Source: Verrucomicrobiota bacterium
GTDB taxonomy: Bacteria > Verrucomicrobiota > Verrucomicrobiia > Limisphaerales > Fontisphaeraceae
Assembly (NCBI GenBank): GCA_037139415.1
Contig: JBAXGN010000010.1
Location: 1-64,000 of the forward strand
Direction of reading: 5' to 3'
DNA length: 64,000 bases
A program made the translations under genes and the position numbers. Every line of letters begins with the position of its first letter. Position 1 is the stretch's first letter. Shown piece after piece: positions 55,812 through 60,158 of the stretch. The notes beneath the pieces are model-generated. The model saw nothing but the letters and a program-made list of their open reading frames with translations. It was not told where the DNA came from and ran no database searches.

Positions 55812-56010
55812 TGGTCGTCTGCCCGGATATGAATGCAACACCCTTAACACCTTGGAAGGTGGTCTGAGCGACGACTTCGACGCGGGTCAGGTTGAGAGCG
55901 GCCCCTTCCGCCTGAAAAACCGTGGCGGCCGCAGCGGCAAAACCGGCGCCCGCCAACGTCATCGCAAACAGCAAACAATAGATGATCCGCATATTCATTT
56001 TTGAAATCAC
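55780..56010 (-). pseudogene. Truncated carbohydrate-binding (CBM6/35-like) secreted protein
   Basis: 76 codons; the natural start is ATG 55998 (NMRIIYCLL). A signal peptide is followed by TVFQAEGAALN and FQGVKGVAFISGQ, the opening of a CBM6/CBM35-type module (xFEAEDA...GYSGxGYV). The frame then runs antisense into the end of the sialidase gene and stops. The rest of the gene is missing; the break is at about 55812. The GTG at 56010 overlaps the stop of the helicase gene. Confidence 0.6.
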
Positions 56011-59000
56011 TTAGGCTTTGATGCCTTGACGCGGTGGGTTCTTCCGGTTCCTAACCAATCCCCCATTCCTCTCCAGCCTTTGCTACTGTAGGTCTTATTT
56101 GGGTTAGTGGGAATATCCATGGGGAATCGTCCCAACTGCGTTATCTCGCCCCTGATAAAAGCAAACCACTCGGTACGACTCTTTAGTTTGAGATCTCTGA
56201 CAAATGCTCGTGCCTCGTGAAAAGAACGATATTTCCGCAAGAAAGTTGCCACAGTACCGGTTCCCAGCCAATCTCCATACCCTTTCCAGCCTTTCCCCAA
56301 ATACACAGTTTGCGGAGTTGCAGGGATATCCTTTGGAAACTGCCCTAAATGCGGCACCTCGCCCTTACAGTAGGCACACCATTCGGTATTGTTTTTAAGT
56401 TTAAGCTTACGGACGAAGGACCGCGCCGAAACAAACGGACGATATTGCTTAAGCCGAGGACAAATCGAACCTGTCCCCAGCCAGTCGCCGTAACCTCTCC
56501 AACCTTTTTTAGCGTAAGTGCCGCTGGGATTAGCCGGAATGTCCTTGGGCAGTCGCCCCAAATGACACATTTTACCCATACAAAAAGCTCGCCATTCAAG
56601 TTGATTCTTAAGCTTTAAATTTCGGGTGAATTTTCGCGCGTTATGAAAAGAGCGATATTCCTTTAAGAAGTTTGCTACGTTGCCAGTTCCTAGCCAGTCG
56701 CCGTAACCCCTCCAACCTTTTTTAGCGAAAGTATGGCTGGGGTTGGCCGGGATATCCTTGGGTAGTCGCCCCAAATGATGCATTTTTCCCTTACAAAAGT
56801 CTTGCCATTCAGTTTTACTCTTGAGCTTGAGCTTGCGAACAAAAGAACGAGCTTGGGGAAACGGGCGAAACTGCTTTAGCTGATTCGCAACAGTACCTGT
56901 CCCCAACCAATCCCCCATACCTTTCCAGCCTTTGTCAGCATAAGTCCGTGCGGGTCCAGCCGGAATGTCAGATGGTAACTTTTCAAGATGAGGCAGATGG
57001 CCTTTACAAAAGGTAGACCATTCATCTCGATTTTTAAGTTTAAGTTTACGGACAAAAATCCGCGCTTCTCTGAATACACGATATTTTTTTAGTTGGTCTG
57101 CCACTCTCTTGGTTCCAATCCAATCCCCCATTCCTTGCCATCCTTTGCTGGAGTAAGTCCTATATGGTTTTGCCGGAATATCGTTGGGTCGTCGTCCTAG
57201 CTGCGGTATTTCACCTTTACAGAAAGCACGCCATTCGGAGCTACTTTTGAGACCAAGCTTACGGGCAAATGACCGGGCTTCCCGAAACGGACGGAACTGT
57301 CTCAGGCTTGGCGCAACCGTGCCGGTTCCCAACCAATCGCCCATGCCCTTCCAGCCCTTGCCTATGTATGTGTTTTTAGGGGAAACTGGAATATCTGCAG
57401 GCAGTCGCCCTAATTTTGGCAACTCTCCTTTGCAGAAAGCAAACCACTCCGTTCCACTCTTCAATTTCAGTTTGCGAGCAAACTCACGCGCCTTGTAGAA
57501 TGGACGGTATGTTCTGAAATTCGTTGCTAATCTGCTGGTCCCTAGCCAATCGCCCATCCCCTTCCAGCCTTTATCGGCATATGTTCTCTCCGGACTGGCG
57601 GGAATATCTTTAGGTAACTGCCCCAGCTTTGGCATCCCACCTTTACAAAAATTGGACCATTCATCTCGGTTATTTAATTTCAGCCTGCGAGCAAATGCAC
57701 GCGCCATATGGAATGGACGAAATTCTCTAAGGCGTGTCGCAACTGTGCCTGTTCCTAGCCAATCACCCATGCCTTTCCAACCTACGCTAGCATAAGACAG
57801 ATTGGGATGTAACGGGATATCAGCTGGCATCCGGCCAAGGTGGCACATCCTTCCACCGCAATATGCAATCCATTCATCTCGACTTCTAAGTTTGAGGGTA
57901 TGAACAAATGCGCGCGCAGCGCTGAACGGACGGTATGTCTTGAGTTGATTGGCAATTCTTCCAGTCCCCAACCAATCGCCTACGCCTTTCCAACCTTTAT
58001 CTGCATAAATCCTCTCAGGTTTTTGTGGTATATCTACAGGCAAATACCCTAGCCGCAGCATTTTACCCTTACAAAAGGTATTCCATTCGATCCGATTGTT
58101 AAGTTGAAGTGACCTGGCAAACTCACGCGCTTCTTCAAACGGGCGCCACGACAATTTAGCTAGGCGATTCCAGCACTTGAGATCAATTTCGCGAACGAAC
58201 TGGGCGAGGTTAATCCGTTTGGCGAGACGTTCGCCCACGTCGAACTCGACGCTGCCGCCACTGGTGCGTTGCCGACCTTGGGAGACGCCACGGAAATATT
58301 CGATGATGCGGTCGTCGTTGGCGGCCAGGGCGCGGAGGGTGGTGAGCACTTCCTGAAACGAGTCTGACTCGAAGATGTCCTCCGGCAGGGCGTCCGCATC
58401 GTGAAGGATCGGCACGATGACATAGCCCAGTTTTTTGCCAGGACTCGGACGCAGGGCGCGGCCCACAGCCTGGACGATGTCCACCGCGCTCCGGCGCGGA
58501 TCGGCAAACAGCACGCAATCAATGCCCGGCACATCCACGCCCTCGGTAAGGCACCGGGCATTGGTAACCAGGCCGCGCCTGGCCTGCGCAAAATCGCCAA
58601 TGATGCGGGCACGGGTGCCGGTAGGGGTGCGCCCGGAGACATGGAACGTTTCCAGGCCACCATACCTGGGGAACGCGCGGGTGAAGGCCTCGTTATGGGC
58701 CTTGAACAGTTCCGCCCGCTGGATGCTGCCGTGGAACGACACCGCATGGCGGATGGGATGCCGGACCATCGCCTTGCGCAGCGCGATGAGGGAGGCGAGC
58801 ATATCGGCCTCGATCTCCCGGCTCCACCGTCCCTGGTCCGGTTTGACAAAGACATTTTTCCGGATCAGTTCCGCGACCTCATCGCGGGAGACGCAGATGC
58901 TGATGATCTTGTAATCACTGAGGATGGGCGGGGCATATTCCAGCGCCCGCTTGAAGGAGAGCAGATGGAAGGTCTCACCGTAGATGGCGGGGTTATCCAT

Positions 59001-60158
59001 GCTCAACACCGCGTCGCTCTGGCCCACGTAGCGCCGCTCGGTGGCGGTCATGAACAGGCGGCGGCGGATGGGCAGGTTCGCATCGTGCAGCAGGTGGGAG
59101 AACAGCTTGTCCGCGGCACCCACGGTCTTGTGTGCCTCATCCATGATACCGAGGTCAAAGCGGAATTTGGCGGAGCGCGCCGCCCGGGCGAGGGCCTCGC
59201 CGCTCTGGTAGGTGGTGAAGACGACCGTCCACCCGTGGTGCTTTCGTTTCAGCCACGCGGCAATATCCTCCGGGGCCGTGAGGCAAGGAACGCCGAGATC
59301 CTGCCGCAGCACGGCGACGTCATCACGCTCGATGCGACCGGCGGATTCATCGCTGCACACGCAAATCCACTCCACGGCCCGGCCGTTGGCCAGGGTTTCG
59401 CGCAGCCACACCTTGAGGGTCTGCCGGATGAGGGCGAGGCTGGGCACGGCAATGACGATACGTCGGGCCTGGAGCTGATCCGCAATCCAATAGGCGGTTA
59501 GGCTCTTGCCGCTGCCGCACGGCATGATGAGCTTGCCGCGCTTCGCCTTTTTGACGACAAAGTGATGGTACCCGTCCTTGACCGCACCCTTTTGATGCGG
59601 ACGCGGTTTCAAGGGGGCCAGCGATTCGGATTGATGAGCAAGGTGAGCCCGCAAGCGGGCGAAGAATTCGGCGTCAAGCCCCTGCCACACATCGAGCGCG
59701 CAGAACCCGATGCGCTCCTGATCCTTGAGCACGTGTGTGATGCGCTCGGTAGTGGAGCAGATAATGCCAAACGAGAAGCCGCGACACACACCAAAGGCGA
59801 GGCCGGTGAAGGTGGAGATTTCGCGCCAGGCCAGGGAGCGATCGGTTGGCTGACGAAACTTGCATTGGACAGCCCAGAACTCGCCATCCCGGGTCTCGGC
59901 CACGAGATCAATGCCCTGATCGGTGGCGGGGAGCTTGAGCTTTTCTCGCACGGCGGATGGCACGTCCCGTTGCAGCCAGACGTGCCGGAGCTTGCTCGCA
60001 TATTCCGGCTCCAGCAGGAGGTAGGCTTTGACGAGTTGCTCGAACAGGTCGCCCTTCTGTTGTTCGGTGAGCTGACGACAACAGCGCTCGACGTCCGCCC
60101 AGGAAGCACAGCTCCGGAGCGCGCCAGATACTGACCGAGTTGTTTCAGCATTCATCAT
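56007..60158 (-). CDS. Mrr-like nuclease + SF2 helicase protein with ten 71-residue integrase-type repeats
   Basis: 1383 aa. Residues 1-180: Mrr/restriction-endonuclease-like fold with Glu40, GIDLV (Asp84) and VQCKF (Gln98, Lys100), the D...QxK form of the PD-(D/E)xK site. Residues 185-640: SF2 ATPase with Walker A MPCGSGKS (Lys218), DEAH (340-343), TAT (371-373), a domain 2 from about 460 and QAVGRALRP (563-571). Residues 672-1383: ten tandem repeats of 71 aa (last 73), each with AR, EW, C, DIP, GW and GDWLGT at fixed positions, close to the phage-integrase repeat unit. The front half matches the start of type ISP restriction proteins, but no methyltransferase is present or adjacent. Proposed role: stand-alone DNA defence or processing. 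Confidence 0.85.
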   Translation of the reverse strand: MMNAETTRSVSGALRSCASWADVERCCRQLTEQQKGDLFEQLVKAYLLLEPEYASKLRHVWLQRDVPSAVREKLKLPATDQGIDLVAETRDGEFWAVQCKFRQPTDRSLAWREISTFTGLAFGVCRGFSFGIICSTTERITHVLKDQERIGFCALDVWQGLDAEFFARLRAHLAHQSESLAPLKPRPHQKGAVKDGYHHFVVKKAKRGKLIMPCGSGKSLTAYWIADQLQARRIVIAVPSLALIRQTLKVWLRETLANGRAVEWICVCSDESAGRIERDDVAVLRQDLGVPCLTAPEDIAAWLKRKHHGWTVVFTTYQSGEALARAARSAKFRFDLGIMDEAHKTVGAADKLFSHLLHDANLPIRRRLFMTATERRYVGQSDAVLSMDNPAIYGETFHLLSFKRALEYAPPILSDYKIISICVSRDEVAELIRKNVFVKPDQGRWSREIEADMLASLIALRKAMVRHPIRHAVSFHGSIQRAELFKAHNEAFTRAFPRYGGLETFHVSGRTPTGTRARIIGDFAQARRGLVTNARCLTEGVDVPGIDCVLFADPRRSAVDIVQAVGRALRPSPGKKLGYVIVPILHDADALPEDIFESDSFQEVLTTLRALAANDDRIIEYFRGVSQGRQRTSGGSVEFDVGERLAKRINLAQFVREIDLKCWNRLAKLSWRPFEEAREFARSLQLNNRIEWNTFCKGKMLRLGYLPVDIPQKPERIYADKGWKGVGDWLGTGRIANQLKTYRPFSAARAFVHTLKLRSRDEWIAYCGGRMCHLGRMPADIPLHPNLSYASVGWKGMGDWLGTGTVATRLREFRPFHMARAFARRLKLNNRDEWSNFCKGGMPKLGQLPKDIPASPERTYADKGWKGMGDWLGTSRLATNFRTYRPFYKAREFARKLKLKSGTEWFAFCKGELPKLGRLPADIPVSPKNTYIGKGWKGMGDWLGTGTVAPSLRQFRPFREARSFARKLGLKSSSEWRAFCKGEIPQLGRRPNDIPAKPYRTYSSKGWQGMGDWIGTKRVADQLKKYRVFREARIFVRKLKLKNRDEWSTFCKGHLPHLEKLPSDIPAGPARTYADKGWKGMGDWLGTGTVANQLKQFRPFPQARSFVRKLKLKSKTEWQDFCKGKMHHLGRLPKDIPANPSHTFAKKGWRGYGDWLGTGNVANFLKEYRSFHNARKFTRNLKLKNQLEWRAFCMGKMCHLGRLPKDIPANPSGTYAKKGWRGYGDWLGTGSICPRLKQYRPFVSARSFVRKLKLKNNTEWCAYCKGEVPHLGQFPKDIPATPQTVYLGKGWKGYGDWLGTGTVATFLRKYRSFHEARAFVRDLKLKSRTEWFAFIRGEITQLGRFPMDIPTNPNKTYSSKGWRGMGDWLGTGRTHRVKASKPK
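56010..58145 (-). repeat. Ten in-frame 213-bp coding repeats within the helicase gene
   Basis: Repeat 1 spans 58145-57933, and each following one is 213 bp lower: 57932, 57719, 57506, 57293, 57080, 56867, 56654, 56441, and 56228 for the last (to 56010). Fixed residues per unit are F3, A6-R7, F9, E20-W21, C25 (Ile in repeat 10), P36, D38-I39-P40, P43, G51-W52, G54, G56-D57-W58 and G60-T61. Positions 4-5, 11-18, 28-31 and 44-50 vary. GC by hand is about 45-53% on sampled lines, against 65-70% for the helicase part. Confidence 0.9.

What the first reader, a model, noticed from the sequence alone, without database searches (positions are those of the whole stretch)
56007..60158. Nuclease-helicase fused to ten phage-integrase-type repeats: candidate stand-alone defence protein
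Seen: an Mrr-like PD-(D/E)xK domain, an intact SF2 motor, then ten 71-aa repeats with constant framework residues and variable positions. Known: the first two domains in this order occur at the start of type ISP restriction proteins, where methyltransferase and target-recognition domains follow. Here the repeats take that place and no methyltransferase is nearby. Inference: the repeats are a modular DNA-binding tail that selects targets, and the protein is a restriction-like system without modification, or a processor of foreign or recombining DNA.
Basis: partly seen in the sequence, partly recalled or inferred. Interest (0 to 1): 0.88.

Follow-up and report, generated by a model that had tools for sequence, protein, structure and literature searches.

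The report
Restriction-like enzyme with swappable recognition repeats
A single bacterial protein joins a DNA-cutting and DNA-pumping engine, shared with a known class of anti-virus restriction enzymes, to a string of interchangeable repeats; in nearly identical marine bacteria the engine is the same but the repeats differ completely, as expected for a one-gene defence whose target can be changed by swapping modules.

Summary
Window 56007-60158(-) encodes 1383 aa: an Mrr-type PD-(D/E)xK nuclease, an intact SF2 motor (LlaBIII, type ISP: E 2e-55; structural Z 31 over 599 residues) and ten 71-aa repeats. Homologues exist in at least eight phyla, with 3-12 repeats.

(2) In one pair of relatives two adjacent repeats are replaced inside an otherwise 94-99% identical array. 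(3) In four SAR11 genomes the gene sits alone, without methyltransferase or integrase, between copies of a tRNA end. (4) No partner gene recurs among 103 neighbours. (5) The same repeats are fused to GIY-YIG nucleases and SF2 helicases in viruses, and occur in the VPA1269 protein of gamma-mobile-trio elements. (6) A sister branch carries HA repeats instead.

Best reading: a methyltransferase-free, type-ISP-like nuclease-translocase whose modular, hypervariable array selects DNA targets; probably stand-alone defence against phages or mobile elements. DNA binding, specificity and defence are inferred, not shown.

The parts
56007..60158 (-). Whole gene: nuclease-motor-repeat protein, 1383 aa
   Evidence: intact ORF; only copy in its genome
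59724..60011 (-). Mrr-type PD-(D/E)xK nuclease core (aa 50-145); invariant D80, D84, Q98, K100 (E40 in the preceding helix)
   Evidence: Pfam Mrr_cat_2 3.7e-18; aligned to LlaBIII D..QxK; invariant in 49 homologues
59040..59612 (-). SF2 motor, first RecA-like domain (aa 183-373): Walker A K218, DEAH 340-343
   Evidence: Pfam ResIII 5.5e-14; invariant residues
58446..58763 (-). SF2 motor, second RecA-like domain (aa 466-571): motif VI Q563/R567/R570
   Evidence: Pfam Helicase_C 6.5e-10; invariant residues
58161..58364 (-). Helical linker between motor and repeats (aa 599-666); lies roughly where the coupler of type ISP enzymes begins
   Evidence: AlphaFold2 model; structural alignment to LlaBIII reaches model residue 721
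57948..58160 (-). Repeat 1 (aa 667-737)
57735..57947 (-). Repeat 2 (aa 738-808)
57522..57734 (-). Repeat 3 (aa 809-879)
57309..57521 (-). Repeat 4 (aa 880-950)
57096..57308 (-). Repeat 5 (aa 951-1021)
56883..57095 (-). Repeat 6 (aa 1022-1092)
56670..56882 (-). Repeat 7 (aa 1093-1163)
56457..56669 (-). Repeat 8 (aa 1164-1234)
56244..56456 (-). Repeat 9 (aa 1235-1305)
56031..56243 (-). Repeat 10 (aa 1306-1376), then a 7-aa basic tail

Best explanation
A single-protein, methyltransferase-free relative of type ISP restriction enzymes. The C-terminal array of INT_rpt-type repeats binds a particular, probably long, DNA sequence, each repeat contributing a few base pairs through its variable positions. 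Binding on incoming phage or mobile-element DNA switches on the SF2 motor, which translocates, and the Mrr nuclease cuts or nicks when motors collide or stall. Self DNA would be spared because it lacks the array's target, not because it is methylated. Targets change by adding, losing and swapping repeats or whole arrays on a conserved chassis carried, where the borders are visible, in small tRNA islands. Shown: the domains, intact catalytic residues, modular hypervariable arrays, absence of a recurring partner gene, island location in several relatives. Inferred: sequence-specific DNA binding, translocation and cleavage (by homology to LlaBIII/LlaGI), defence as the role, and the way self DNA is spared.
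For: Type ISP chassis: LlaBIII E 2.3e-55 over residues 32-618, Z 31.3, 599 residues, rmsd 2.9, next non-ISP row 18.6; catalytic D..QxK and Walker A aligned and invariant. Modularity: 49 full-length homologues, 315 repeats, 3-12 each. Hypervariability: SAR11 pairs 93-96% identical in nuclease-motor but 33-40% in register in repeats, background 36%; nucleotide identity 88-90% stops at repeat 1 and resumes in the last codons and the syntenic flank; L046/L056, 94-96% identical flanks and N-terminal part, about 1 kb of repeats without detectable similarity. Module exchange: L010/L024, repeats 1,2,5,6,7 94-99% identical, 3 and 4 replaced. Framework G56, W57, G61, W63, G65 kept in 104 of 104 repeats; amino-acid change concentrated at variable columns (pN 0.40 v 0.14, pS equal). 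Arrays basic, +8.7 net charge per 100 aa v +2.2. Same repeats on GIY-YIG nucleases, an HNH-like phage protein, SF2 helicases and the GMT VPA1269 protein. Stand-alone: no neighbour family in more than 2 of 103 proteins, no credible methyltransferase motif pair in flanks while ISP relatives from the same search show NPPY; SAR11 islands holding only this gene.
Against: No direct evidence that the repeats bind DNA, let alone a sequence; no target is known. Neighbourhoods are not strongly enriched in defence genes. Type ISP enzymes need two convergent sites for a double-strand break (PMC7049714), awkward for a rare long site. The distant HA-repeat relative TtrA acts in conjugation of linear plasmids (PMC8743542), so this lineage may also contain non-defence functions. 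The set of variable columns was picked from data overlapping those used to test it.
Confidence: 0.55

Rival explanations
1. Mobile-element accessory or DNA-transfer factor: the protein helps an integrative element or plasmid move, like the distant HA-repeat relative TtrA of Streptomyces linear plasmids, and the array recognises element ends or insertion sites.
For: Gene lies in tRNA-bounded islands with short paired iterons just outside the gene at both ends in several SAR11 loci; the repeats also occur in the VPA1269 protein of gamma-mobile-trio elements; HA-type relatives sit at ends of Streptomyces linear plasmids and ttrA is required for SLP2 conjugation (PMC8743542).
Against: SAR11 elements with the same tRNA-Thr site and the same iterons carry completely different arrays, so the array does not read the element's own ends; TtrA-like matches begin after residue about 157, i.e. 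without the nuclease; the single-gene islands carry no transfer genes.
Confidence: 0.15
2. Homing-type selfish nuclease: the gene cuts alleles or sites that lack it to spread itself, the array defining a long homing site.
For: Same repeats on GIY-YIG and HNH-like proteins of viruses, the classical homing nucleases; single-gene islands.
Against: The insertion site is the same tRNA-Thr while arrays differ wholly; a homing nuclease fixed at one site should keep its recognition part. An ATP-driven type ISP motor is not used by known homing nucleases (own knowledge).
Confidence: 0.1
3. The arrays recognise something other than a DNA sequence (a phage protein, RNA, a DNA structure or modified base), the nuclease-motor being the effector.
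For: Hypervariable repeats also fit ligand recognition; no binding data exist; the five-repeat model had no match among solved structures.
Against: The repeats recur on enzymes that act on DNA: GIY-YIG, HNH-like, SF2, GMT recombination module; arrays are basic; they occupy the place of the methyltransferase and DNA-recognition domains of type ISP enzymes.
Confidence: 0.15
4. Repeats are a non-specific DNA-holding tail under relaxed constraint; hypervariability is drift and recombination without specificity, and the protein is a repair or processing helicase-nuclease.
For: Basic arrays; variable number of repeats; SF2 resemblance to RadD/XPB is detectable.
Against: Invariant framework in 104 of 104 repeats; total array turnover over a chassis with dN about 0.02; patchy distribution (3 close homologues in 289 genomes of the phylum), unlike a housekeeping repair gene.
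Confidence: 0.05

Closest known systems
Type ISP restriction-modification enzymes LlaBIII / LlaGI
   Same: Mrr nuclease followed by SF2 translocase in one chain; conserved catalytic residues; structural Z 31
   Different: No gamma-class N6-adenine methyltransferase (no NPPY), no TRD; a tandem repeat array instead; separate, well supported branch of the tree
Mrr-SF2-HA 'Helicase associated domain' proteins of actinobacteria and others (e.g. WP_064689746.1), and TtrA
   Same: Same chassis (WP_064689746.1) with a C-terminal tandem array of about 70-aa repeats (PF03457) and no methyltransferase
   Different: Different repeat family; TtrA-like members at linear plasmid ends lack the nuclease match; function of the nuclease-bearing ones not described in papers found
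INT_rpt (PF14882) repeats; VPA1269 proteins of gamma-mobile-trio elements
   Same: Same repeat family by homologues above the curated cut-off and by tblastn
   Different: There in a recombination module next to gmtY and gmtX; here on a nuclease-translocase
TALE and other modular DNA-binding repeats (BurrH, MOrTL, STAR)
   Same: Tandem repeats with a fixed framework and variable positions, modular length
   Different: Repeat length 66-71 aa instead of about 33; sequence unrelated; no code known; not among the families characterised in the main text of PMC11417379

Membership tests
Type ISP restriction-modification enzyme | N-terminal Mrr-family nuclease | tested here: met
   Mrr_cat_2 3.7e-18; aligned to LlaBIII
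Type ISP restriction-modification enzyme | SF2 helicase-like ATPase after the nuclease | tested here: met
Type ISP restriction-modification enzyme | Helical coupler domain | tested here: inconclusive
   a helical linker follows the motor and the LlaBIII alignment runs to model residue 721, not compared in detail
Type ISP restriction-modification enzyme | N6-adenine methyltransferase in the same chain | tested here: not met
   no Pfam methyltransferase match and no NPPY in the protein; ISP relatives have NPPY
Type ISP restriction-modification enzyme | C-terminal target recognition domain of the ISP kind | tested here: not met
   the whole C-terminal half is ten repeats
INT_rpt repeat family PF14882 | score above curated cut-off | tested here: not met
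   window protein itself has no match; homologues L021 and L017 pass, so membership is by homology only
HA-domain (PF03457) nuclease-helicase proteins | HA repeats at the C terminus | tested here: not met
   no HA match in the window protein v 369 bits in L091
Modular DNA-recognition repeat protein (TALE-like in logic) | tandem repeats, fixed framework, variable fixed positions | tested here: met
Modular DNA-recognition repeat protein (TALE-like in logic) | sequence-specific DNA binding set by the variable positions | not testable with these tools
   needs SELEX/PBM/B1H
Anti-phage defence system | reduces phage infection or foreign DNA uptake | not testable with these tools
   only indirect signs: tRNA islands, hypervariable arrays, PADLOC type IIG/ISP-kind hit 8.7e-94 over residues 29-620

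The most novel reading that the evidence does not exclude
A protein-programmed restriction system: INT_rpt repeats are a further natural modular DNA-reading code beside zinc fingers and TALEs, and bacteria (including SAR11) use arrays of 3-12 of them on an ATP-driven nuclease to attack long specific sequences of phages or mobile elements without any self-modification, diversifying by shuffling repeats and arrays.
Probability: 0.35. Interest if true: 0.96.

Novelty: new variant of a known kind. Interest (0 to 1): 0.85.

Why it matters
If the array reads DNA, it is a naturally modular recognition domain of 66-71 aa units already attached to an ATP-driven nuclease and to homing-type nucleases, helicases and a recombination module, hence both a possible new code for DNA targeting and a restriction strategy that needs no methyltransferase. 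It would also give streamlined marine bacteria such as SAR11 a defence of which each carrier strain has a different version. Near-identical chassis with different arrays make the question directly testable: the main variable between the proteins is the array.

Tried and rejected
Direct PF14882 search of the genome: silent, and controls silent too, so uninformative. Structure search of the five-repeat model: no PDB match at E <= 0.001 and no Z >= 2 among the 172 chains compared, one viral match at E 1.1e-5, a 309-aa protein without a name; inter-repeat geometry is uncertain (pTM 0.44), so I do not claim a new fold. Looking for an empty site in the window's relatives: the flanking gene is not conserved in 5 relatives. 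Looking for att-like repeats around the window gene: none of 15 nt or more within 4 kb, and no second copy of the window's own tRNA-Arg end. Conserved partner gene: none. The hypothesis that the array reads the element's own ends: rejected for SAR11 because arrays differ while ends are equal. The MOON family (marine DNA-binding repeats, PMC11417379) was checked and is a different, FHA/PP1-linked animal family. Literature on PF14882: only a low-quality contact model in PMC8078820. The gamma-mobile-trio paper itself was not found in the library.

Full report
OBSERVATION. The ORF at 56007-60158 on the minus strand is intact, 1383 aa, and is the only copy in its genome, a 7.9 Mb assembly whose closest homologues are in Verrucomicrobiota. 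Pfam gives Mrr_cat_2 (50-145), ResIII (183-373) and Helicase_C (466-571), all over their cut-offs. From residue 667 to 1376 there are ten units of exactly 71 aa with no gap; the DNA shows nine 213-nt spaced copies at 62-71% identity, far beyond chance. The repeat half of the gene has 48.4% GC, the nuclease-motor half 62.5%.

RELATIVES. A scan of about 85,000 species genomes returned 80 loci; 49 full-length proteins (counting the window's and one from a later search) have the same order nuclease-motor-repeats, with 3 to 12 repeats, 315 in all. Hosts include Verrucomicrobiota, Lentisphaerota, Bacteroidota, Pseudomonadota (among them SAR11), Campylobacterota, Nitrospinota, Melainabacteria, Myxococcota and Fidelibacterota. 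The family is patchy: 3 close homologues besides the window's in 289 genomes of the phylum, a handful in about 300 and 400 sampled SAR11-group genomes. The repeats of the window protein do not reach the Pfam model INT_rpt, but those of L021 (88.8 bits) and L017 (48.0 bits) do (cut-off 26.5).

CHASSIS. Residues 32-618 match the type ISP enzyme LlaBIII (E 2.3e-55); the catalytic D..QxK and Walker A segments align. The AlphaFold2 model of residues 1-1021 (pLDDT 84.5) aligns to LlaBIII at Z 31.3 over 599 residues, LlaGI 24.4, and the next rows at 18.6 or less. G36, E40, D80, D84, Q98, K100, K218, D340-E341-A342-H343, Q563, R567 and R570 are invariant in 49 homologues. In the chassis tree the ISP enzymes form one branch (100/100) and 30 of 31 repeat-bearing proteins another (100/99); the exception, L082, groups with an HA-repeat protein (L083), i.e. 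the C-terminal array was exchanged on that chassis.

ARRAYS ARE HYPERVARIABLE AND MODULAR. In SAR11, proteins whose nuclease-motor parts are 93-96% identical (L041, L044, L045, L048, L055) have 4 to 7 repeats that are 33-40% identical in register, against 36% for repeats of unrelated proteins. At DNA level identity of 88-90% runs to the start of the repeats, disappears through them, and returns in the last codons and over 7-8 kb of syntenic flank. In L046 and L056, with 94-96% identical flanks and N-terminal parts, about 1 kb of repeats is unrelated (the L056 ORF is interrupted in its repeats). L032/L035 and L003/L024 show the same in weaker form. L010/L024 show the step itself: of seven repeats, 1, 2, 5, 6 and 7 are 94-99% identical and repeats 3 and 4 are replaced. 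L013 has a young, expanded array of 12 repeats, mean 72.6% identical. The framework is strictly kept (G56, W57, G61, W63, G65 in 104 of 104 repeats of the 71-aa class) while columns 27, 42, 23, 9, 49, 39, 36, 24 and 50 are the most variable. Between similar repeats of one array pN is 0.40 at the variable columns and 0.14 elsewhere with equal pS (0.55, 0.52); the columns were chosen from overlapping data, so this is support, not proof. In the model of repeats 3-7 (pLDDT 91, all helical) columns 23, 24, 27 and 28 lie on the second helix with the spacing of one face, as in a recognition helix; that is inference.

THE SAME REPEATS ELSEWHERE. In viral contigs the repeats are fused to GIY-YIG-type proteins (about a dozen loci; confirmed by Pfam in L144 and L146), to SF2 helicases (L130, L134, L140), to SNF2-type helicase plus methyltransferase proteins of large contigs (L127, L131, L139), or stand as arrays alone (in L129 six adjacent genes). 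A huge-phage protein carries an HNH-like segment (recognised by eye; no Pfam hit) and five repeats. In plasmids they occur in VPA1269 family proteins, which lie between gmtY (recombinase) and gmtX of the gamma-mobile-trio module. All partners with a recognised function act on DNA.

CONTEXT. In four SAR11 genomes (L041, L045, L048, L055) the gene is the only gene between two 43-54-bp copies of the 3' end of tRNA-Thr(UGU), an island of about 3.4-3.7 kb; L044, L046, L056 and L040 have variants, L040 at tRNA-Leu. Short paired iterons lie just outside the gene at both ends and are equal in L041, L044 and L045 although their arrays differ, so the array does not read the element's ends. In Verrucomicrobiota, L011 lies between 41-bp copies of a tRNA-Arg end. 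No integrase is in the single-gene islands, so movement must be helped in trans. Among 103 neighbouring proteins no family occurs more than twice; the few defence-like ones (AbiEi/AbiEii, a BrxHI-like helicase, DUF3644, DUF1016) are scattered. A search for paired methyltransferase motifs in all ORFs of at least 180 aa in the flanks found none credible, while the ISP relatives show NPPY. The window shows no island boundaries.

MECHANISM. Type ISP enzymes recognise a site, translocate and cut when two converge head to head (PMC7049714, PMC4666363, PMC4872093). Here the array takes the place of methyltransferase and TRD. I infer that the array binds a DNA target, starts the motor and leads to nicking or cutting; that self DNA is spared because the target is absent; and that array turnover follows changing phages or mobile elements. 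Sequence-specific binding has strong indirect support; the defence role is the likeliest but not the only reading; the need for two convergent sites is an unsolved point.

RIVALS AND KNOWN RELATIVES. A sister architecture carries HA repeats (PF03457, 369 bits in WP_064689746.1; also L083 and L104). Streptomyces 'Helicase associated domain' proteins at linear plasmid ends match only from about residue 157, i.e. motor plus HA without nuclease; in position they fit TtrA, which is required for conjugation of SLP2 (PMC8743542). This keeps a DNA-transfer role open. No paper found in the library describes the function of PF14882 repeats or this protein; a 2024 survey of DNA-binding tandem repeats describes other families in its main text (PMC11417379).

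VERDICT. It is filed as a new variant of a known kind (a type ISP-like nuclease-translocase), not as a type ISP member, because the methyltransferase and TRD were tested and are absent.

Noticed in passing
L041 1922-5598; L044 1292-6684; L045 440-3922; L048 9726-13235; L055 9724-13230: SAR11 tRNA-Thr(UGU) 3' end is a hot spot with islands of about 3.4-3.7 kb that hold a single gene, and in L044 two islands in tandem; short paired iterons flank the gene inside the island and differ between island types.
   Followed up: partly
L040 4072-7789; L011 1730-9632: The same gene family lies in a tRNA-Leu island in another SAR11 genome and between copies of a tRNA-Arg(acg) end in an Akkermansiaceae MAG.
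   Followed up: partly
L142, L144, L146-L148, L151-L159: GIY-YIG-type proteins of viral contigs with two to five INT_rpt-type repeats: probable homing nucleases with a modular recognition tail.
   Followed up: partly
L129 1746-8683: Six adjacent genes in a 308-kb viral contig, all made largely of these repeats (4 to 9 each).
   Followed up: no
L127 4992-9221, L131 4989-8489, L139 4788-8939: Proteins of viral contigs joining a repeat array, an SF2/SNF2 helicase and a Methyltransf_8 domain.
   Followed up: no
L160 5971-9806: Two neighbouring VPA1269 family genes between gmtY and gmtX on a Pseudomonas plasmid; repeats may set the insertion site of gamma-mobile-trio elements.
   Followed up: no
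L091 3911-7555, L083, L104: Sister proteins (motor, with a clear nuclease match in L091) carrying HA repeats (PF03457) instead; function apparently undescribed.
   Followed up: partly
L105 1465-4152: A SAR11 protein related in its motor region, with neither HA nor INT_rpt repeats nor methyltransferase.
   Followed up: no
L013 11972-14509: Twelve very similar repeats in a Victivallis MAG: a young, expanding array.
   Followed up: partly
window 56007-60158: Sharp GC step inside one ORF: 62.5% in the nuclease-motor half, 48.4% in the repeat half.
   Followed up: yes
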